From Verrucomicrobium sp. BvORR034 (GTDB taxonomy: Bacteria; Verrucomicrobiota; Verrucomicrobiia; Verrucomicrobiales; Verrucomicrobiaceae): a DNA stretch of 64,000 nt. A program made the translations under genes and the position numbers. The stretch covers positions 1-64,000 of the forward strand of contig NZ_BATQ01000104.1 in NCBI RefSeq assembly GCF_000739635.1, read 5' to 3'. The first letter of the stretch is position 1, and each line of letters opens with the position of its first letter. The notes beneath the pieces are model-generated. The model ran no database searches. It was given only the letters and a program-made list of their open reading frames with translations, and was not told the origin of the DNA. Positions 2 through 12,630 of the stretch are shown one piece after another.

Positions 2-397
2 TTGATGCTGGCGCTCCTCGCCACCGTGCCATCCTTGCACTCTGAAGGGCGAGACTCCAAAACTCCCGTGGCGGTGAGCCCGTCAAGCTCGACTGAGCGC
101 TGGGTTCCCCCAGGGTATAAGGCCGAGACGACGTTGGTGGGAAAGACGCTGACCAAAGTCCTCGAAGCCCTCAAGACCAGTGAGTCAGCAGTCCAGCACT
201 ACGATTTCACGCCGGGCCAACTCACCGCCGTTGCCATTCCGGCTAAAGCCGATGGCAGATGGCTCGTGCTGGGCTTCGCACCGCCCCCGATGGACTTCAC
301 GCGAAAGTGGCCCGCGAAGAGCCTTGAAAAGCATCCCATCGCCTGGGCCTATTCACGAGAAGGGAAACCCAAGGCGCACGAGATTGTGCTCGAGTAA
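2..397 (+). CDS. Hypothetical secreted protein, possibly 5' truncated by the window edge
   Basis: The reading frame is open to the first base of the window, so the true start may lie outside; ATG at 5 or TTG at 2 are the only starts visible. The first residues (LALLATVPSLHSEG) look like the end of a signal peptide, followed by a Ser/Pro-rich stretch and about 90 residues with mixed charge. No family is recognised. It ends with TAA and is followed after 33 bases by another small gene on the same strand, so the two may be co-transcribed. Confidence 0.5.
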   Translation: MMLALLATVPSLHSEGRDSKTPVAVSPSSSTERWVPPGYKAETTLVGKTLTKVLEALKTSESAVQHYDFTPGQLTAVAIPAKADGRWLVLGFAPPPMDFTRKWPAKSLEKHPIAWAYSREGKPKAHEIVLE

Positions 398-430
398 TAC
401 GACAGATCCGAGACCTCGTCCCAGTTTGAT

Positions 431-700
431 ATGAACTCCCGTCTACTCAAGCTGGCCGGCATTCTGGTGCTGGCGGCATCCGGCGTCGCCGCCTCCCACA
501 TCCCTTGGGGAAAAGAAGACGCATTCCACGGCACCGGGTTCCCGGTATTCACCGTTGCTTGGGACAGAAGCAAGGACACCGCCCTGTTCCTGGACTACCC
601 CAATCCGCTCGGGTACATCCTGAATCCATTACTATTCGTGGTTGTTGGATTTTTTATATTTTGTGCTACGCGATGGTGTTTTCACCTGCTGAACAAATGA
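431..700 (+). CDS. Small membrane protein of unknown function
   Basis: This encodes 89 residues from an ATG. An N-terminal hydrophobic segment (about residues 6-22) and a second one near the C-terminus (about residues 62-82, rich in Phe, Val and Ile) predict one or two membrane passes with a short polar middle. No family is recognised. It follows the preceding secreted protein closely on the same strand. It could also be a signal-peptide protein anchored at its C-terminus. The 165 bases that follow, up to the stop of the large minus-strand gene, hold nothing I recognise. Confidence 0.5.
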   Translation: MNSRLLKLAGILVLAASGVAASHIPWGKEDAFHGTGFPVFTVAWDRSKDTALFLDYPNPLGYILNPLLFVVVGFFIFCATRWCFHLLNK

Positions 701-865: not shown

Positions 866-3800
866 TCATTTTCCGGTTGCCAGCGGCGGCGTGAGATCCA
901 GCCCATATACGGCAATTCGAACCGCGTGTTTCATGTCCTCCTCGAGTGCCATGGCAATGCCTTGCAGTCTCAGGACTACCTCGGCGAACGCAAGCTTCCT
1001 GCGACTCCCGGGCTCAATCCAGAACTTTTTACTGCCATTGTAAGTTAGCAGCAAGCAACCTGAACTACACAACTTATGCCTGAGATACTGTTTCACCAGT
1101 TGAACCCGAAGAGCCTTTTCCAAGTCACGAATCGACCATCGGGAGTCAGCAATCTTCACTTCTATGACGGATCTCACTTCTCCTCGAACGGAGTGTAACC
1201 TAATGTCAGTCTTCTTGCGATCTGCGACCTCCTCTTCTCTTACTGTTATGTATACGCTCTTGGCTCGATCGGCAAATTTGGCAGCAAGAGCTCTCTGCAT
1301 GTCCTCTTCGTCAGAGAGTGCGGTCAAAATGGATCTGTCGGTAAAATCATGATGGCTTATGTCGTGCTGTATATCATCTAGACGGTCGATGACTGTGTTA
1401 AACAGACTGTCGCGGTCAAAGGTTGCTCGCTCATATCTCGCTTCAAACATCTGAACATCTTCAGGTCGAAAGGCATCAAACTCAGAATCTTTTGCTGCCC
1501 TTTCGCGAGCCAAGTGTCGCAGTCGATCAGGGATGTGTCGAAAGGCGCTCTCGCTGGCTAATTCACGCAGCATTTCACTAGACTTAATTCCCGGTGTTTC
1601 GATCAGGGCACCAAGGAGGTAGCCACGCGCTTCTTGAGCATGGTCCCGGATGTCTGGAGTGTAGCCACCTGTGTGCACATGATCGTCTTCTGGCCTCACG
1701 AAGGCATATATCTTGCGAAGCATACGACCAAGTAGTTCAACACGCAGTTCTGGGGCTTCAACTATGAGCGCCACTCCATCGGTCCGTGCGAATACGGTTC
1801 CAAACGCTTTGATTGCGACTCGGGAGGCGTCCGCGCCATCGCAATGCGTCAAGAGCTTTTCAATAGCTTCCACCCCACGGACGGGATCGAAACGAAAGAG
1901 TCCTCGAAGAAACACCATCGCAGTTCCCGCGGCCAACCCTAATTCAGACCGCAATTGACATTGATCAGCTACCAGCACCCGTTGACATGTCGGTATTCCC
2001 TCATCAAGGATGCCTAACATTTGGTCTAACACATGTGACCAGTGCGTGTCGTTTTGCTCATAAAAATCTAAACTGAAGGTCTGAAGGATTTCTAGCAATC
2101 TCGGTGCCAGAAGAATTTTGAGCGCATTGGACGCGGAAGTAAGATTTTGCAGGGCTGGTAAGTGCTCGGTGCTGGCGGCACTGACAATCTGATCGCGGAT
2201 TTCGCTGCCCAGTACTGATTCAACGGTAGAAGGATGATTCTGTGCAAGTTCATCAAGAAAATTTGAGAAACTGTTGATCTCAACCATTGCAAGTTTCGCA
2301 GCCAAGATCGCTTCGGATGAGTTTAGTTTGGTTGCCCATCCGGCTTTCTCAGATTCGGCAGATACACCGCACATGCCATATATCCAAACGTATTGCGTAC
2401 TGTTACGATCTTCTTTGGCGCGGCCACTCCACATCTCTGGCGAGGTTTGCCTCCAATACCATTGAAAAGCGGTCGAAGCGTAGTCGGCTACGTTCTGGCC
2501 AAATGCCTCAATTAGGAGATTTCTATTCCACACATTGTACCTGGTGGAACTATCCTGCGATTTTGCTAACCATGCGTACAAGAGCGCAATAGAGTTTCCA
2601 GTTTTTTCTGTGGAGAAAAATATACAAGGATCCGTCATGACTTTTTGCCTCCATGCGCGCCATTCATCGATTGCACGATCATTGCGCAACTGGTGTAACG
2701 CCTGTCTCCTTTTGGCATTCCGTTCCAATCTCTCCATTTTGCGATCTTTTACCGGGGGGATGATACTTTTGTTTACAAGTGCCTCGAGATCCTCGAATCC
2801 CGACACTAGTTTCTGCAACTGAATCGCTTGATCGTGTTTGCGGCCACGGCTTCTCCATAGCCAGAGCAATGCTTCAACTGCAACTATTGAGTATTCTCGA
2901 CAACCGGAGCAGACACGTCGCTCCAACCATTCTGAATCTCCGTCTTCGAACTTGTCTAGGATTGTATTCTGCTCAACTTGATGGAACCTCATCCACGAAT
3001 CACTCTTTGGATAAAGCTCGTCCATCAGCGATAGCTCCGCCAAAAATGCGGCTTCACGGTATTCGCTTGCGGACTGGAAGAATTTCTTGAGGTTATCAAC
3101 TTCGGCTCGTGAGTGAGGATCGTTGTGAAAACGGTGTGCTACAATGCATGCGCGAAGAATTGATTGGCCAACGTGATGGGCATTGAGTTCAAGGTATTTG
3201 AGGCAAGCGGAAGCTAATCCGATTGAATATGAGTTTAACTTGCCACTCATTCGATAGTACTCTGAGTGAGGACTCCGCCCGCGCAACACTAGATCTGCAA
3301 GTCTTTCGATGAATGTTGTCAGAATCTCGGTTGTCGAAAACACTTCAACGATGGTCGACAGCGACCAACTCAGTTGCTCTGCATCTTTCTCCGTATGGGC
3401 ATCTCTCCCTAATAGTTCAAACAATCGATCCAGCGATAAATGCTTTGGAAATATGTTATTGAGCGCATCAGCAACAAGTTGAGTCGGCCAAGAGCTTGGG
3501 TTGCCAAGCATATTGAGAGCAGTCCTCCGAATCCTCGCAATTTCTGTTGAACTCGCCAAAGCTCTCATGGCAACCCCCCGGAGCGATGGTGCGAATCCGT
3601 CCGAAGTTGCCACGGATTCGGCAATGTCCATGCACCCTTCAAGCGGGCTGAGCCAAATGAGTTCAAGCAGCAGCGACTGCACTTCATTGTTTTGAGTGGT
3701 TCTCTGCCAACATTTGTATACTGTTGAGTCTAGGCCGATGTGCGCTAGCCTTTGCACAGTATCAATCTGAATACCCAGACCTCGCCAACCGCCCCGACCA

Positions 3801-5224
3801 TAGAAGACAACTAGAGCTTCGACTAGCAATTTCCTGCTTTCCACGGTGAGCGATTCGGGATCTCCTTGCGTCAGAAGAAGTTCTGGCTCCAGCTTAAGCA
3901 CTTTCTGTCGCACTGATTCGTTCGAAAGAGAGTGCCAGGACGCGATTGCGCGCATAGAAGGGACAACTAACTCGAAGCCATATCGATTGGAAAAGAGCAG
4001 TCTAAAGATTGCATTGGTAGGCATGCCTCTATCGCGGAGATTGGCAAGTCTTTGGGCTGCAAGATACTCCTGTATGGAACGATGGTGAAAGCGAATGCGT
4101 CCATAGGTAGCAGGGTCAAAAAGTGGTCTCCTTAAGAGGGTTTGTCGCTCCTCTTCCGTCCAGTCTGTGAGTATGGCCGATGCATCAATTGCGGTTTCGG
4201 AGACATTCAGTTCCAGCACTTGCTCTGGGCTCTTAATGGTCCTACAATGCGATAGCGTAAGTGCAAGAGCTAAACGTTGTGCGCCCTGCATCGCTTTATC
4301 ATCCGATAGCACGCCGCGATCCGCTCGCTCAGGGTTGTCGCGAAGCCTCGACGATAGATTCAAGGCATGCTGCTCAGCACGCGTTCCCAATCGTCGTTTT
4401 GTTTTCCAGAATGAAATGAGCTCCAGTAGATCGAGAGGCTGCCTTGCGAATAGCCACGCATTGCGCTTGCGTATTGTATCGAGGAAATCTTTAGCATCCT
4501 CGATGCCTTTAGACAGCGTGAGAGTTTCAATTTGCCGATTACTCAGAGGAAGCAAAGTCACAATTGTCATTGCAGGGAGCGCAGCCTTGCCCTTAATCTC
4601 AGCGTTGCGCTGATCAGTCTGGTGTGACTTTTCCTTGTCAAATGCTTGGAGAAATAGCTCCTCTGCGGACAATGTGTTTTTCTTCTTTGGTGGCTCAAAA
4701 GGAAGATACTCTTGAACCAGTGCACTATCGTGATGAAGCCTCCAATCGTGGGGTCGACTGGATATCAAGATGTGGGAACGGTTCAGCTCGGCGCCAAGAG
4801 CATTCTTTAGTCTTTGCAGTGCTCGCTTGAAGGTTCCACGAGTGAGTTTAAGTTCATCGACCGAGTCCAAGAAAAACCAACCTTCTTCAGATTCGTCATT
4901 CAGCCACTGATCGAAACGCTTGTTCTCTGGAGGGCTAAGAATAGACGGGAGATCTTCTTGCCCTAGTTGCTCCAGGGGTATGAAAAGGCAAAATTGCCCA
5001 TTGGAGTTCAGGGCCTTGGATCGCTCTTGCATTTCCCTGGTTTTTCCGGCTCCTGCAGTCGCCAATAGCAATACTCTTGCGCGACACAATAACTCTTCCC
5101 AGCCCAAGGAGAGATACGACTCGTACATCGACGGCTCATTGAGTTGAGCAAGATCGTCAGAGGCTTCGAGCTCTGTTTCGTTCACGATCCGAAATCGCCG
5201 CGCGAGGTCAACGAAGGAATTCAT
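866..5224 (-). CDS. NACHT/STAND-like NTPase with C-terminal PD-(D/E)xK-like nuclease domain, probable defence protein
   Basis: The 1452-residue product has a P-loop (ATAGAGKT, residues 55-62), a Walker B strand with acidic tail (WFFLDSVDE, about 116-124) and a sensor-like ILISSRP near 152, the arrangement of NACHT-type STAND NTPases. About 1000 middle residues are Leu-rich helical sequence, as in HEAT/TPR-like sensor arms. The last 130 residues contain TDIRL then VIEVK and a downstream QLVKQYL, resembling a PD-(D/E)xK endonuclease core. STAND NTPases of this build sense phage proteins and trigger a nuclease, but Avs-type proteins carry the nuclease at the N-terminus, so C-terminal placement is notable. 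The gene is AT-richer than its neighbours and stands alone, suggesting transfer. The defence role is inferred from architecture only. Confidence 0.8.
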   Translation of the reverse strand: MNSFVDLARRFRIVNETELEASDDLAQLNEPSMYESYLSLGWEELLCRARVLLLATAGAGKTREMQERSKALNSNGQFCLFIPLEQLGQEDLPSILSPPENKRFDQWLNDESEEGWFFLDSVDELKLTRGTFKRALQRLKNALGAELNRSHILISSRPHDWRLHHDSALVQEYLPFEPPKKKNTLSAEELFLQAFDKEKSHQTDQRNAEIKGKAALPAMTIVTLLPLSNRQIETLTLSKGIEDAKDFLDTIRKRNAWLFARQPLDLLELISFWKTKRRLGTRAEQHALNLSSRLRDNPERADRGVLSDDKAMQGAQRLALALTLSHCRTIKSPEQVLELNVSETAIDASAILTDWTEEERQTLLRRPLFDPATYGRIRFHHRSIQEYLAAQRLANLRDRGMPTNAIFRLLFSNRYGFELVVPSMRAIASWHSLSNESVRQKVLKLEPELLLTQGDPESLTVESRKLLVEALVVFYGRGGWRGLGIQIDTVQRLAHIGLDSTVYKCWQRTTQNNEVQSLLLELIWLSPLEGCMDIAESVATSDGFAPSLRGVAMRALASSTEIARIRRTALNMLGNPSSWPTQLVADALNNIFPKHLSLDRLFELLGRDAHTEKDAEQLSWSLSTIVEVFSTTEILTTFIERLADLVLRGRSPHSEYYRMSGKLNSYSIGLASACLKYLELNAHHVGQSILRACIVAHRFHNDPHSRAEVDNLKKFFQSASEYREAAFLAELSLMDELYPKSDSWMRFHQVEQNTILDKFEDGDSEWLERRVCSGCREYSIVAVEALLWLWRSRGRKHDQAIQLQKLVSGFEDLEALVNKSIIPPVKDRKMERLERNAKRRQALHQLRNDRAIDEWRAWRQKVMTDPCIFFSTEKTGNSIALLYAWLAKSQDSSTRYNVWNRNLLIEAFGQNVADYASTAFQWYWRQTSPEMWSGRAKEDRNSTQYVWIYGMCGVSAESEKAGWATKLNSSEAILAAKLAMVEINSFSNFLDELAQNHPSTVESVLGSEIRDQIVSAASTEHLPALQNLTSASNALKILLAPRLLEILQTFSLDFYEQNDTHWSHVLDQMLGILDEGIPTCQRVLVADQCQLRSELGLAAGTAMVFLRGLFRFDPVRGVEAIEKLLTHCDGADASRVAIKAFGTVFARTDGVALIVEAPELRVELLGRMLRKIYAFVRPEDDHVHTGGYTPDIRDHAQEARGYLLGALIETPGIKSSEMLRELASESAFRHIPDRLRHLARERAAKDSEFDAFRPEDVQMFEARYERATFDRDSLFNTVIDRLDDIQHDISHHDFTDRSILTALSDEEDMQRALAAKFADRAKSVYITVREEEVADRKKTDIRLHSVRGEVRSVIEVKIADSRWSIRDLEKALRVQLVKQYLRHKLCSSGCLLLTYNGSKKFWIEPGSRRKLAFAEVVLRLQGIAMALEEDMKHAVRIAVYGLDLTPPLATGK

Positions 5225-5315: not shown

Positions 5316-5678
5316 TTACTCGATCTCCGGCAATCCGTTAGGGTAGGGGCGCTCATAGGCAAGGTTCCTTATCCCTCGATAGAGTCCAAGCATAGGAACA
5401 AATTCTACCACGAGCCACAGTTCTTGTTCGCACCCCTCGGCGGATCTGACATTCACAGAGTAGTCAAACTCAAGAAGGAATATTGCTGCTCGAATGGAGC
5501 CGCAATCCTTGAAAACTATCTTTCTGCGAGACGACAGGAGAATGTAGGCGTTCTCCTCCAGCCACTTTTGCACGGCGAATCGCGCTTGAACCAACATCCA
5601 AATGTGTCGGAGGAATCGGAAGGACAGAAATGGCACGAAAATCCAGAGGGAGATTAGTGCGAAAGTTTCGAAGGTCAT
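5316..5678 (-). CDS. Small membrane protein of unknown function
   Basis: The chosen ATG at 5678 gives 120 residues starting with a strongly hydrophobic helix (FALISLWIFVPFLSF), followed by a basic stretch and a soluble C-terminal half. An upstream in-frame ATG at 5771 would add 31 mostly polar residues; the longer open frame beyond that runs into livF and is a shadow. No family is recognised. It lies 125 bases downstream of livF on the same strand, with a weakly hydrophobic second segment (LWLVVEFVPMLGLY). Codon use is AT-richer than the liv operon. Confidence 0.45.
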   Translation of the reverse strand: MTFETFALISLWIFVPFLSFRFLRHIWMLVQARFAVQKWLEENAYILLSSRRKIVFKDCGSIRAAIFLLEFDYSVNVRSAEGCEQELWLVVEFVPMLGLYRGIRNLAYERPYPNGLPEIE

Positions 5679-5803
5679 GGACAGGGGGAGTGACGCATCC
5701 TCCCCCGATACGTCACATTTTTCCAGTGGTTTGCGATTCCTATGCTGAAGTGCACCCCACGGCTCCCGCATCAGCACTGCTTCGAGCAACTTCCTGGAGA
5801 CCC

Positions 5804-6511
5804 TTAATCCCCCAAATAAGCCTCGCGCACCTGCGGATTTTGCCGTAGCGCAGCCGCAGAGTCTTCCAAGATCACTTTCCCAGTCTCCAAGACATAACCG
5901 TAGTGGGAGATCGCCAACGCCAGGTTGGCGTTCTGTTCGACAAGCAGAATCGTCAGGCCGCGCTCTTTGTTGATCTTGACGATCTGGTCGAAGATGGCGC
6001 GTACGAGCATGGGGGCGATGCCGAGGGAGGGCTCGTCCAGCATGAGGCATTTGGGCTTGCTCATGAGGGCCCGGGCGATGGCGAGCATCTGCTGCTCACC
6101 GCCGGAGAGGGTGCCGGCGAGCTGGGAGATGCGCTCCTTGAGCCGGGGGAACATGGTGAAGGCGTAGTCCACGTCCTCCTTGATGCCGGCTTTGTCCCGA
6201 CGCAGGTAAGCGCCCATCCGGAGGTTCTCCTCCACGGTCAGGTTGGCGAAGACCATGCGGCCTTCCGGCACGTGGCAGAGGCCCTTGGAGACCACAGCGT
6301 GGGGCGACTGGTTGGTGATTTCCTTCCCGTCGTACTTCACTTGGCCGCCGCCGGCGCGGATGAGTCCGGAGATGGCGCGCAGGGTGGTGGACTTGCCCGC
6401 GCCGTTGGCCCCGATGAGCGTGACGATGGACTTCTCCGGCACTTTCAGGGACACCCCGTGCAGAGCCTTGATCGTTCCGTAGGAGACTTCGAGTTGGTTG
6501 ACTTCAAGCAT
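5804..6511 (-). CDS. livF: Branched-chain amino acid ABC transporter ATP-binding protein LivF
   Basis: This is one of the two cytoplasmic ATPases driving uptake of branched-chain or related amino acids. The protein has Walker A (GANGAGKST), the signature LSGGEQQ, Walker B (CLMLDEP) and a switch His-containing end, and it starts with the typical LivF opening MLEVNQLEVSYG. The ATG at 6511 overlaps the end of livG by 8 bases and has GGAAAGG upstream; an in-frame ATG at 6529 is possible but adds an atypical leader. It is the last liv gene of five. Length (235 residues) matches the family. Confidence 0.93.
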   Translation of the reverse strand: MLEVNQLEVSYGTIKALHGVSLKVPEKSIVTLIGANGAGKSTTLRAISGLIRAGGGQVKYDGKEITNQSPHAVVSKGLCHVPEGRMVFANLTVEENLRMGAYLRRDKAGIKEDVDYAFTMFPRLKERISQLAGTLSGGEQQMLAIARALMSKPKCLMLDEPSLGIAPMLVRAIFDQIVKINKERGLTILLVEQNANLALAISHYGYVLETGKVILEDSAAALRQNPQVREAYLGD

Positions 6512-10533: not shown

Positions 10534-10611
10534 GAGGTTGCCTCGCGGCGGAATGGTGGTTTGATCGGGGTCGGTTTTGTTCCTGTCCCCGATTCTTTTT
10601 GCCCCCCTCTA

Positions 10612-12630
10612 ATGGCCCGCGACTACACGCTTCATGGCACCCCGGCTCCTCATCGTATCGATTACCGTGCGGAGCTGAATGAACAGCAGTTCGCTGCCGT
10701 GACGGCTCCAGCGGGGCAGTCCCTGGTGATTGCGGGCGCAGGCAGCGGCAAGACCCGGGTGCTGACCTACCGGGTGGCCTACCTGCTGGACAATGGCATT
10801 GCCCCGGAAAACATCCTGCTGGTGACCTTCACCAACAAGGCCTCCCGCGAGATGCTGGACCGGGTGCAGAATCTGCTGCCGATCGAGACGAACCGGCTCT
10901 GGGGCGGCACCTTCCACTCCATCGGCAACCGGCTCCTGCGCAAGCACGGCGACCGCCTGGGGCTACGCCAGGGCTTTTCCATCATGGACCGGGAGGACCA
11001 GAAGGACCTCATGGAGACGGTGGTGACCAGCAGCGGGGTGGACACCACGACCTACCGCTTCCCCAAGCCGGAGGTGCTGGGGGAGATCTTCTCCCTGGCA
11101 GACAACACCAGCTCCACCATCGCCCAGGTGGTGAAAGGGAAGTACCCGTACTTTGAGCGGGTGGTGGAGGGCATTGAGAAGCTCCGCGAGCTCTACACGG
11201 CCAAAAAGCTGGATACAAACAACGTGGACTTCGACGATCTGCTCACGATGACGCTCCGGCTCTTCCGTGAGAATGAGGATCTGCTGGATCGCTACCGCCG
11301 GACCTTCCGCTTCATCCTGGTGGACGAGTATCAGGATACCAACCTGCTCCAGAGCGAGCTGATCGAGCTGCTGGCCGGGCCCGAGGGGAACCTCATGGTG
11401 GTGGGGGATGACGCCCAGTCCATCTACTCCTGGCGCGGGGCGAACCTGAAGAACATCCTGGAGTTCCCCCAACGCTACCCGAAGGCGCGGGTGTACAAGA
11501 TCGAGGTGAACTACCGCAGCGTGCCCGAGGTGCTGCATCTGGCAAACCGGGCCATCGAGGTGAATCAGGGGCAGTTCCGCAAGGCACTCATGCCCGTCCG
11601 CCAGGGGAAGGAGGTGCTGCCCGCCCTGGTACCGCTGGACAACGCCAGCGCCCAGGCATCGTTCGTGGCCCAGCGCATGCTGGAACTGCGGGATGAAGGC
11701 ATGGAATTCAATGAGATGGCCGTGATCTATCGCGCCCACTACCACTCGCTGGAAATCCAGATGGAGCTGACCAACCGGGGCATCCCTTTCCAGATCACGA
11801 GCGGTCTGCGATTCTTCGAGCAGGCACATGTGAAAGATGTGGCCGCCTTCATGAAGTTCGCGGTGAACCGTCAGGACGAGGTCTCCTTCATGCGCCTGGT
11901 GCGGCTCATCCCCGGTGTGGGTACCGCCAGCGCGGGGAAGATGTGGCAGCACTGGCTGCAAAGCGCCGCCGTGGCCGGGCCGGTGACCCAGAGCGACTTT
12001 GGCGAGTGCCTTCGCAAGCTGCCCGCGCCCAAGAAGGCGGCCAAGATCTGGGAGCAGACCGCCTTCACCCTGGAGGAGTTGCTGGAGCCGGAGGGGCAAC
12101 CCGTGGCCCCCTCCGCCATGATCCGCAGCGTCATGGAGGGCGTGTATGAGGACTATATGCGCACCAAGTTCAAAAATGCCGACCAGCGCAAGCAGGACCT
12201 GGAGCAGCTCAGCAACTACAGCACCCGGTTTAAGGACGTTTCTGAGTTCCTCAGCCAGCTCGCGCTCGTGAGCGGGGTGGACACGGACGAGCAGCCCAAC
12301 GCAAACAACCGCGACACCGAGGCGGTCACGCTGACCACTGCCCACCAGGCCAAGGGGCTGGAGTGGCAGGCCGTCTTTGCCGTCTGGCTCGCAGAGGGCA
12401 TGTTCCCGAACAACCGCGTCATCGAGGAGTCAGGCGAGGTGGGGCTGGAGGAGGAGCGCCGTCTCTTCTACGTCACGGTCACCCGGGCGAAGGACGAGCT
12501 GTACCTGACGTATCCGGTGATCAACTACCAGGCGCGCGATGGTGAGGTGCTGCAGCGTCCGTCCCGATTCCTTCAAGAACTGCCCAAAGACTTGATGGAG
12601 ACCTGGAACGTGCGAAGTGTGTTCGCGTGA
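10612..12630 (+). CDS. UvrD/PcrA/Rep-type superfamily 1 DNA helicase
   Basis: This 672-residue protein carries the SF1A helicase motifs in order: Q-motif region LNEQQFAAV, motif I (GAGSGKTR), Ia (TFTNKAS), II (DEYQDTN), III (GDDAQSIYSWRGA), IV (NYRS), V (TTAHQAKGLEW) and VI (VTRAKDELYL). It would unwind DNA 3'-5' in repair or restart of replication. The ATG at 10612 gives the usual short leader; an upstream in-frame start at 10561 overlaps the promoter region and is less likely. It is slightly shorter than E. coli UvrD (720). The next gene starts inside its stop codon, suggesting coupled translation. Confidence 0.93.
   Translation: MARDYTLHGTPAPHRIDYRAELNEQQFAAVTAPAGQSLVIAGAGSGKTRVLTYRVAYLLDNGIAPENILLVTFTNKASREMLDRVQNLLPIETNRLWGGTFHSIGNRLLRKHGDRLGLRQGFSIMDREDQKDLMETVVTSSGVDTTTYRFPKPEVLGEIFSLADNTSSTIAQVVKGKYPYFERVVEGIEKLRELYTAKKLDTNNVDFDDLLTMTLRLFRENEDLLDRYRRTFRFILVDEYQDTNLLQSELIELLAGPEGNLMVVGDDAQSIYSWRGANLKNILEFPQRYPKARVYKIEVNYRSVPEVLHLANRAIEVNQGQFRKALMPVRQGKEVLPALVPLDNASAQASFVAQRMLELRDEGMEFNEMAVIYRAHYHSLEIQMELTNRGIPFQITSGLRFFEQAHVKDVAAFMKFAVNRQDEVSFMRLVRLIPGVGTASAGKMWQHWLQSAAVAGPVTQSDFGECLRKLPAPKKAAKIWEQTAFTLEELLEPEGQPVAPSAMIRSVMEGVYEDYMRTKFKNADQRKQDLEQLSNYSTRFKDVSEFLSQLALVSGVDTDEQPNANNRDTEAVTLTTAHQAKGLEWQAVFAVWLAEGMFPNNRVIEESGEVGLEEERRLFYVTVTRAKDELYLTYPVINYQARDGEVLQRPSRFLQELPKDLMETWNVRSVFA

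What the first reader, a model, noticed from the sequence alone, without database searches (positions are those of the whole stretch)
866..5224. Lone NACHT-like NTPase with nuclease at the C-terminus
A P-loop and LDSVDE Walker B at the N-terminus, about 1000 residues of helical repeat, and a C-terminal TDIRL...VIEVK...QYL block that fits a PD-(D/E)xK nuclease. In Avs and many bNACHT proteins the effector precedes the NTPase, so the order here is reversed. It is AT-rich, alone, and next to a housekeeping operon, suggesting a mobile single-gene defence system.
Basis: partly seen in the sequence, partly recalled or inferred. Interest (0 to 1): 0.6.

Follow-up and report, generated by a model that had tools for sequence, protein, structure and literature searches.

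The report
HyoA-type NACHT antiphage protein, C-terminal nuclease
This is a bacterial relative of animal inflammasome-type immune sensors, with the predicted DNA-cutting part at the tail rather than the head; its family was already named, but relatives that carry a different weapon, or none, at the same end suggest the tail is an exchangeable effector.

Summary
Window 866-5224 (-) is one intact 1,452-codon gene: NACHT module with NACHT-type Walker B, winged-helix motif, helical repeats, and a C-terminal PD-(D/E)xK nuclease fold. It is not an orphan: it passes NCBIfam's HyoA ("NACHT domain-containing antiphage protein") cut-off at full length; PADLOC and Pfam missed it. All 90 aligned full-length relatives keep E1306, E1330, D1340, E1355, K1357, Q1375 and Y1380. 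The N-terminal model matches NLRC4, NOD2 and NLRP3 (Foldseek: Avs4, Avs3 first); the C-terminal model matches PD-(D/E)xK nucleases. The gene is foreign (GC3 0.49 against 0.85 for livF) and sits at a defence hotspot: two congeners carry Drt8 or SIR2-NACHT genes there. Relatives are scattered over many phyla, on plasmids and beside other defence genes. New here: some members lack the nuclease at exactly this end. In two Rhizobium plasmids the core stops near residue 1265, is under purifying selection (dN/dS 0.10) and overlaps an upstream Fic gene; a viral-contig relative has a membrane helix instead. Most likely the C-terminal nuclease is the exchangeable effector of a phage-sensing NLR-like protein. 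Defence and nuclease activity are inferred, not shown here.

The parts
866..5224 (-). hyoA-like gene, 1,452 aa plus stop
   Evidence: NCBIfam NF058534.1 1259.7 bits against cut-off 1200, residues 7-1446
5039..5062 (-). Walker A / P-loop ATAGAGKT, residues 55-62
   Evidence: G60 and K61 in 90 of 90 relatives, T or S at 62 in 90 of 90
4853..4876 (-). NACHT-type Walker B FFLDSVDE, residues 117-124
   Evidence: D120, D123, E124 in 90 of 90 (partly by construction, pattern)
4055..4093 (-). winged-helix-type motif RFHHRSIQEYLAA, residues 378-390
   Evidence: conserved; beta hairpin 369-379 followed by helix 382-398 in the model
4025..5224 (-). NACHT module with winged helix, residues 1-400
   Evidence: VIA-align 2: NLRC4 Z 15.5 (406 aligned), NOD2 Z 14.5, NLRP3 Z 13.8
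1430..4024 (-). all-helical repeat region, residues 401-1265, presumed sensor
   Evidence: secondary structure of models
866..1429 (-). C-terminal PD-(D/E)xK nuclease module, residues 1266-1452, presumed effector
   Evidence: model pLDDT 91.5; PD-(D/E)xK structures top the list; absent at this boundary in nuclease-less relatives
1154..1207 (-). catalytic block, D1340 to E1355-x-K1357
   Evidence: invariant in 90 of 90
5316..5678 (-). co-directional upstream ORF of 120 aa, unknown; no relative found, so not counted as part of the system
   Evidence: (no tblastn match in the loci held), no Pfam, PADLOC or NCBIfam match
5801..5805 (.). homology breakpoint next to the livF stop codon: outside it two congeners have other defence genes
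108..678 (.). left flank shared in pieces with congener G389, broken there by an ISL3 transposase gene

Best explanation
A single-gene, NLR-like antiphage (or anti-mobile-element) protein of the HyoA family. At rest the NACHT module holds nucleotide and the long helical-repeat arm keeps the protein monomeric or inactive. Binding of an invader molecule to the repeats lets the NACHT modules exchange nucleotide and oligomerise, which brings the C-terminal PD-(D/E)xK domains together as active nucleases that cut DNA (phage, host or both) and abort the infection. The nuclease is the effector and is an exchangeable module at the C-terminus. Shown here (by computation): family, domain order, invariant catalytic residues, folds, foreign origin, defence context, relatives without the nuclease. 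Inferred: trigger, oligomerisation, DNA as substrate, abortive outcome.
For: NCBIfam HyoA full-length above cut-off. NACHT fold. Seven nuclease residues in 90 of 90 on a PD-(D/E)xK fold; the first 28 rows of the VIA list are all nucleases or nuclease complexes that I class as PD-(D/E)xK from recall, best Can2 Z 8.7. Same site holds Drt8 or SIR2-NACHT genes in congeners. 66 of 72,556 plasmids hold a match, 39 over at least 80% of the query. Neighbours of relatives: 296 PADLOC families matched among 135 neighbours, against 11 among 113 controls. E. coli and Klebsiella copies sit beside Shango genes and a SIR2 gene. Nuclease-less cores with a Fic gene, dN/dS 0.10, and with a membrane helix.
Against: No activity was measured. 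VIA Z of 8.7 is close to the level the tool calls common, and plain Foldseek gave no significant PDB match for the C-terminal model. PADLOC has no model for it. The paper behind the name HyoA was not found, so I have not seen its experiments. In R. beringeri/leguminosarum the Fic gene persists without the NACHT gene, so the Fic-NACHT pairing is not obligatory.
Confidence: 0.8

Rival explanations
1. The nuclease is not a death effector but restricts foreign DNA directly, with the NTPase as a DNA-linked switch (McrBC-like logic).
For: McrC is among the VIA matches of the C-terminal model (Z 7.3, 118 aligned); many relatives sit on plasmids.
Against: The NTPase is NACHT/NLR-like, not a McrB-type motor; nuclease-less members persist under purifying selection; the long helical arm fits a protein sensor better.
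Confidence: 0.12
2. It acts mainly against plasmids, conjugation or other mobile elements rather than phages.
For: 39 of 72,556 plasmid records carry near full-length relatives, 33 of the 66 matched records conjugative.
Against: NCBIfam calls the family antiphage; the mechanism would be the same, only the trigger differs.
Confidence: 0.1
3. An ordinary housekeeping gene linked to the liv amino-acid transporter operon.
For: It lies about 0.6 kb downstream of livF in the same direction.
Against: Absent next to livF in the two congeners G388 and G389 and in 14 further family genomes read there; the only other family copy, in G066, is on a different contig from its livF; GC3 0.49 against 0.85.
Confidence: 0.01

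Closest known systems
HyoA (NCBIfam NF058534.1, NACHT domain-containing antiphage protein, equivalog)
   Same: Full-length match above the curated cut-off, same order, same length.
   Different: Only just above the cut-off (1259.7 against 1200), 20-43% identical to the relatives compared. The model also accepts a nuclease-less protein (1238.1 bits), so the name does not guarantee the nuclease.
EruA (NCBIfam NF058535.1)
   Same: Two members over the EruA cut-off (L157, L158) also have a NACHT module in front and an E..D..ExK..Q..Y block at the C-terminus, read by eye; the automatic alignment put E and K one place off.
   Different: Window protein scores 170 bits, far below the cut-off of 1000.
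Avs3 / Avs4 (STAND antiphage proteins)
   Same: First Foldseek matches of residues 1-1190 (E 3e-5 and 5e-5); STAND NTPase plus helical arm plus PD-(D/E)xK nuclease (Avs domain content recalled).
   Different: In Avs3/4 the nuclease is N-terminal (recalled); here it is C-terminal. TM-scores are low (0.15-0.22), so the match is to the general layout.
bNACHT25/bNACHT32 (clade 6 bNACHT)
   Same: NACHT module plus PD-(D/E)xK DNase needed for defence (PMC12169576, passages seen).
   Different: There the nuclease is N-terminal and the NACHT central.
Animal NLRs (NLRC4, NOD2, NLRP3)
   Same: NACHT plus winged-helix fold (Z 12-15).
   Different: No nuclease in those; leucine-rich repeats instead of this helical arm (recalled).

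Membership tests
HyoA (NF058534.1) | Full-length score above the curated cut-off of 1200 bits | tested here: met
   1259.7 bits, residues 7-1446 on model 1-1429 of 1430
HyoA (NF058534.1) | Protects against phage | not testable with these tools
   needs a phage challenge; the source paper was not found
NACHT-clade STAND NTPase | Walker A and acidic Walker B of the D-x-x-D-E type | tested here: met
NACHT-clade STAND NTPase | NACHT plus winged-helix fold | tested here: met
   NLRC4 Z 15.5, NOD2 14.5, NLRP3 13.8; 27 of the first 28 rows by my reading are NLR-family chains, Pfam NACHT itself did not fire
bNACHT / canonical tripartite STAND | N-terminal effector, central NACHT, C-terminal sensor | tested here: not met
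   NACHT begins at about residue 40; effector fold is at the C-terminus
Avs1-4 | Match to an Avs model; N-terminal effector | tested here: not met
   no PADLOC match at E up to 1; no N-terminal effector
EruA (NF058535.1) | Score above 1000 bits | tested here: not met
   169.9 bits
PD-(D/E)xK nuclease superfamily | D ... (D/E)-x-K catalytic residues | tested here: met
   D1340, E1355, K1357 in 90 of 90
PD-(D/E)xK nuclease superfamily | Core alpha-beta-beta-beta-alpha-beta fold | tested here: met
   Foldseek alone not significant
PD-(D/E)xK nuclease superfamily | Metal-dependent nuclease activity | not testable with these tools
   needs purified protein

The most novel reading that the evidence does not exclude
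The HyoA core (NACHT plus helical arm, to about residue 1265) is a sensor chassis whose effector sits at the C-terminal end and is exchanged: PD-(D/E)xK nuclease in most, a membrane helix in one relative, and a Fic enzyme supplied in trans from an overlapping upstream gene in another. NLR-like proteins could then deploy effectors from the sensor end, and one equivalog name would cover several modes of killing.
Probability: 0.5. Interest if true: 0.65.

Novelty: new member of a known kind. Interest (0 to 1): 0.45.

Why it matters
The effector-less and effector-swapped relatives give a direct way to test how an NLR-like sensor drives a weapon attached beyond its sensor arm. They also warn that annotation by the HyoA model does not say which effector is present. 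The livF site is a small, comparable defence hotspot within one genus.

Tried and rejected
Housekeeping gene of the liv operon: rejected, the site varies. Orphan of unknown family: rejected, NCBIfam names it. A conserved partner gene: not found; in the neighbour set no Pfam family was matched by more than 3 of 135 neighbours, and the 120-aa upstream ORF has no relative in the loci held. Hotspot beyond the genus: not supported; downstream of livF in 14 other family genomes I saw no comparable cassette by ORF list, but I did not scan those ORFs for each system singly (113 ORFs of the window and these stretches served as PADLOC control). Absences in VIA lists were not used as evidence.

Led nowhere: single-protein scan of genome contigs (0 relatives of 35 stretches); PDB by sequence for the whole protein and for both alignments (no relative); plain Foldseek of the C-terminal model (none at E up to 0.001). 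The tree does show mixing of phyla, but the statistic is weak: 17 changes of phylum label against a shuffled mean of 17.8; it is FastTree with several long branches. Rows dropped before the 90-row count: 5 of 94 (L046 and L097 change frame, L085, L088 and L094 end near the contig end). L166 (1,150 aa) also lacks the nuclease but looks degraded (Walker A part outside the annotated start, IS630 nearby), so I do not count it. L163 and L165 are about 93% identical DNA and count as one lineage. Neighbour set: nearest ORF of 120-899 aa on each side within 3 kb by a simple ORF caller; larger ORFs dropped. The control is from one bacterial family, not matched by host.

HyoA in print: searches (names; domains) in the held library found no paper that describes HyoA or EruA as antiphage, nor a NACHT-Fic pair; most subscription papers and preprints are not held.
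Full report
WHAT IS THERE. The gene is at window 866-5224 on the minus strand, 1,452 aa, in one open frame. The window begins at the first base of contig C97 of its genome, so the left side ends at window position 1. To the right lies a co-directional liv-type branched-chain amino-acid transporter operon (name by my reading of the products). HyoA has GC 0.494 and GC3 0.494; livF has GC3 0.847 and the rest of the window GC 0.597.

FAMILY. Pfam and PADLOC gave nothing above their thresholds. NCBIfam NF058534.1, 'NACHT domain-containing antiphage protein HyoA', matched residues 7-1446 with 1259.7 bits, over its cut-off of 1200; EruA (NF058535.1) matched with 169.9 bits against 1000. I could not find the paper behind these names in the held library, so I know the antiphage claim only from the model's name.

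RELATIVES. An alignment of the window protein with 14 others found 274 relatives in genome contigs, of which the best 80 were kept. They come from Pseudomonadota, Thermodesulfobacteriota, Verrucomicrobiota, Chlorobiota, Planctomycetota, Omnitrophota and others. In the window's own phylum 24 of 387 genomes had any match and 2 of 387 were over the cut-off, the window's genome and G066 of the same family. Plasmids: 66 of 72,556 records, 39 with a place over at least 80% of the query. E. coli: 3 of 5,426 genomes, searched with the Klebsiella copy as DNA query, which finds close copies only. Viral contigs: 3 relatives among 30 candidate stretches.

CONSERVATION. In 90 full-length proteins (window, G066 copy, 13 plasmid or phage-labelled records, 75 genome loci; 5 of 94 dropped) every row has G60, K61, D120, D123, E124 and R157, and every row has E1306, E1330, D1340, E1355, K1357, Q1375 and Y1380. 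The Walker B was part of the scan pattern, the nuclease residues were not.

STRUCTURE. Residues 1140-1452, with 71 sequences, gave mean pLDDT 91.5. E1306 starts a helix, D1340 stands at the start of one strand, E1355 and K1357 lie on the next, and Q1375 and Y1380 on the following helix. Foldseek against the PDB was not significant. VIA-align 2 on Foldseek's own list put Can2 (Z 8.7), OkrAI (8.0), EcoT38I (7.8), PaqCI (7.8), BglII (7.5), McrBC (7.3), FokI (7.2), Card1 (7.1), NucC (6.3) and NucS-like enzymes on top. That they are PD-(D/E)xK enzymes is recalled. The Z values alone are moderate; together with the invariant residues they are convincing. Residues 1-1190, with 58 sequences, gave mean pLDDT 86.8: a Rossmann-type NTPase, a winged-helix-like part with the conserved RFHHRSIQEYLAA motif, then helices to the end. 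Foldseek ranked Avs4 bound to portal and Avs3 bound to terminase first; VIA-align 2 ranked NLRC4 (Z 15.5), NOD2 (14.5) and NLRP3 (13.8) first.

MOBILITY AND CONTEXT. DNA homology with congeners G388 (96.7%) and G389 (92.8%) starts at window 5805 and 5801, next to the livF stop codon. Beyond it G388 has a Drt8 reverse transcriptase (PADLOC 408 bits) and a 454-aa gene without a match. G389 has a 1,117-aa SIR2_2 plus NACHT protein and a trypsin-like protein. G389 shares pieces of the left flank (window 108-678), split by an ISL3 transposase gene. So two of two congeners read at this site have other defence-type genes; the fourth congener, G387, was not read. In 14 further genomes of the family the place downstream of livF was read as ORF lists and looked ordinary. 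Around the relatives, 135 nearest-neighbour proteins matched 296 PADLOC families at E up to 1e-8, and 113 control proteins from the window and family genomes matched 11, mainly through ABC-type ATPases such as livF (that reading is mine). The tool does not say how many neighbours had any match. Single neighbours include BrxC/D, BrxL, type III methylases, TIR and Fic proteins and integrases. The E. coli copy lies beside SngA, SngB and SngC (Shango) and a SIR2 protein. No neighbour is constant, so the system looks like one gene.

EFFECTOR EXCHANGE. Three relatives lack the nuclease at the same end. L163 and L165 (Rhizobium plasmids, 1,238 and 1,239 aa) stop at a position aligned with about residue 1265, with P-loop and Walker B intact. 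They begin inside the last codons of an upstream Fic gene (CDS 1727-2899 and 2896-6612 in L163; 4712-5899 and 5896-9615 in L165). The Fic proteins match Pfam Fic at 1e-14, bear HPFLDGNGRVAR (FIC motif form recalled), and best match SoFic in PADLOC. No nuclease remnant was found downstream (no tblastn match below E 0.07 that lies there). Between the two cores dN is 0.024 and dS 0.236, ratio 0.10 over 1,238 codons. L163 still scores 1238.1 bits for HyoA. L156, in a viral contig, has a linker and a membrane-helix-like stretch instead of the nuclease and scores 983.3 bits. Against a fixed pair: R. beringeri and R. leguminosarum plasmids carry the Fic gene at 98-99% identity without the NACHT gene; L168 keeps about 97 bases of its start and resumes 3.8 kb later, which reads as a deletion of the NACHT gene with Fic left behind.

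MECHANISM. Canonical bacterial NACHT proteins are described with effector at the N-terminus, NACHT in the centre and sensor at the C-terminus (PMC12169576, passages seen). C-terminal effector-like fusions to STAND proteins have been predicted before, for example glycosyltransferase-4 domains (PMC8195603, passages seen). Here the effector is beyond the sensor arm. The simplest model is trigger binding to the arm, NACHT oligomerisation, and clustering of C-terminal nucleases. This is inferred from the families.

VERDICT. A real, intact, foreign, single-gene NLR-like defence gene of the already named HyoA family, with an unusual but conserved order. The order is not new with this window. The exchangeable C-terminal effector is my addition and is at 0.5.

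Noticed in passing
window 5801-5805; L137:6276-9629 and 10599-11342; L138:10991-13792: Small defence hotspot downstream of livF within one genus: HyoA here, Drt8 plus a 454-aa unknown in G388, SIR2-NACHT plus trypsin-like protein in G389.
   Followed up: partly
L163:1727-6612; L165:4712-9615: Fic gene overlapping a nuclease-less HyoA core, a possible two-gene defence operon; the Fic gene alone persists in R. beringeri after loss of the core.
   Followed up: partly
L156:2944-6867: HyoA-like protein on a viral contig with a membrane-helix-like C-terminus in place of the nuclease.
   Followed up: partly
NCBIfam NF058534.1: The HyoA equivalog model accepts a protein without the nuclease (L163, 1238.1 bits), so the name mixes different effectors.
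   Followed up: yes
L032 (CAKLQH020000024.1): The two 'Acinetobacter phage MD-2021a' records with a HyoA relative carry efflux, two-component and fatty-acid-type genes around it and look bacterial rather than phage (one of the two read).
   Followed up: no
plasmids CP070278.1 and NZ_CP066788.1: Nearly the same plasmid (246,192 and 246,197 bases, identical match values) is filed under a Bacteroidota and an alphaproteobacterium, perhaps a mixed culture.
   Followed up: no
Burkholderia glumae plasmids, e.g. NZ_CP130149.1:71596-77583: In many B. glumae plasmids the HyoA relative is split into two pieces by an ISNCY-family transposase gene.
   Followed up: no
window 5316-5678: 120-aa ORF just upstream of hyoA, same strand, hydrophobic N-terminus, no match anywhere searched.
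   Followed up: partly
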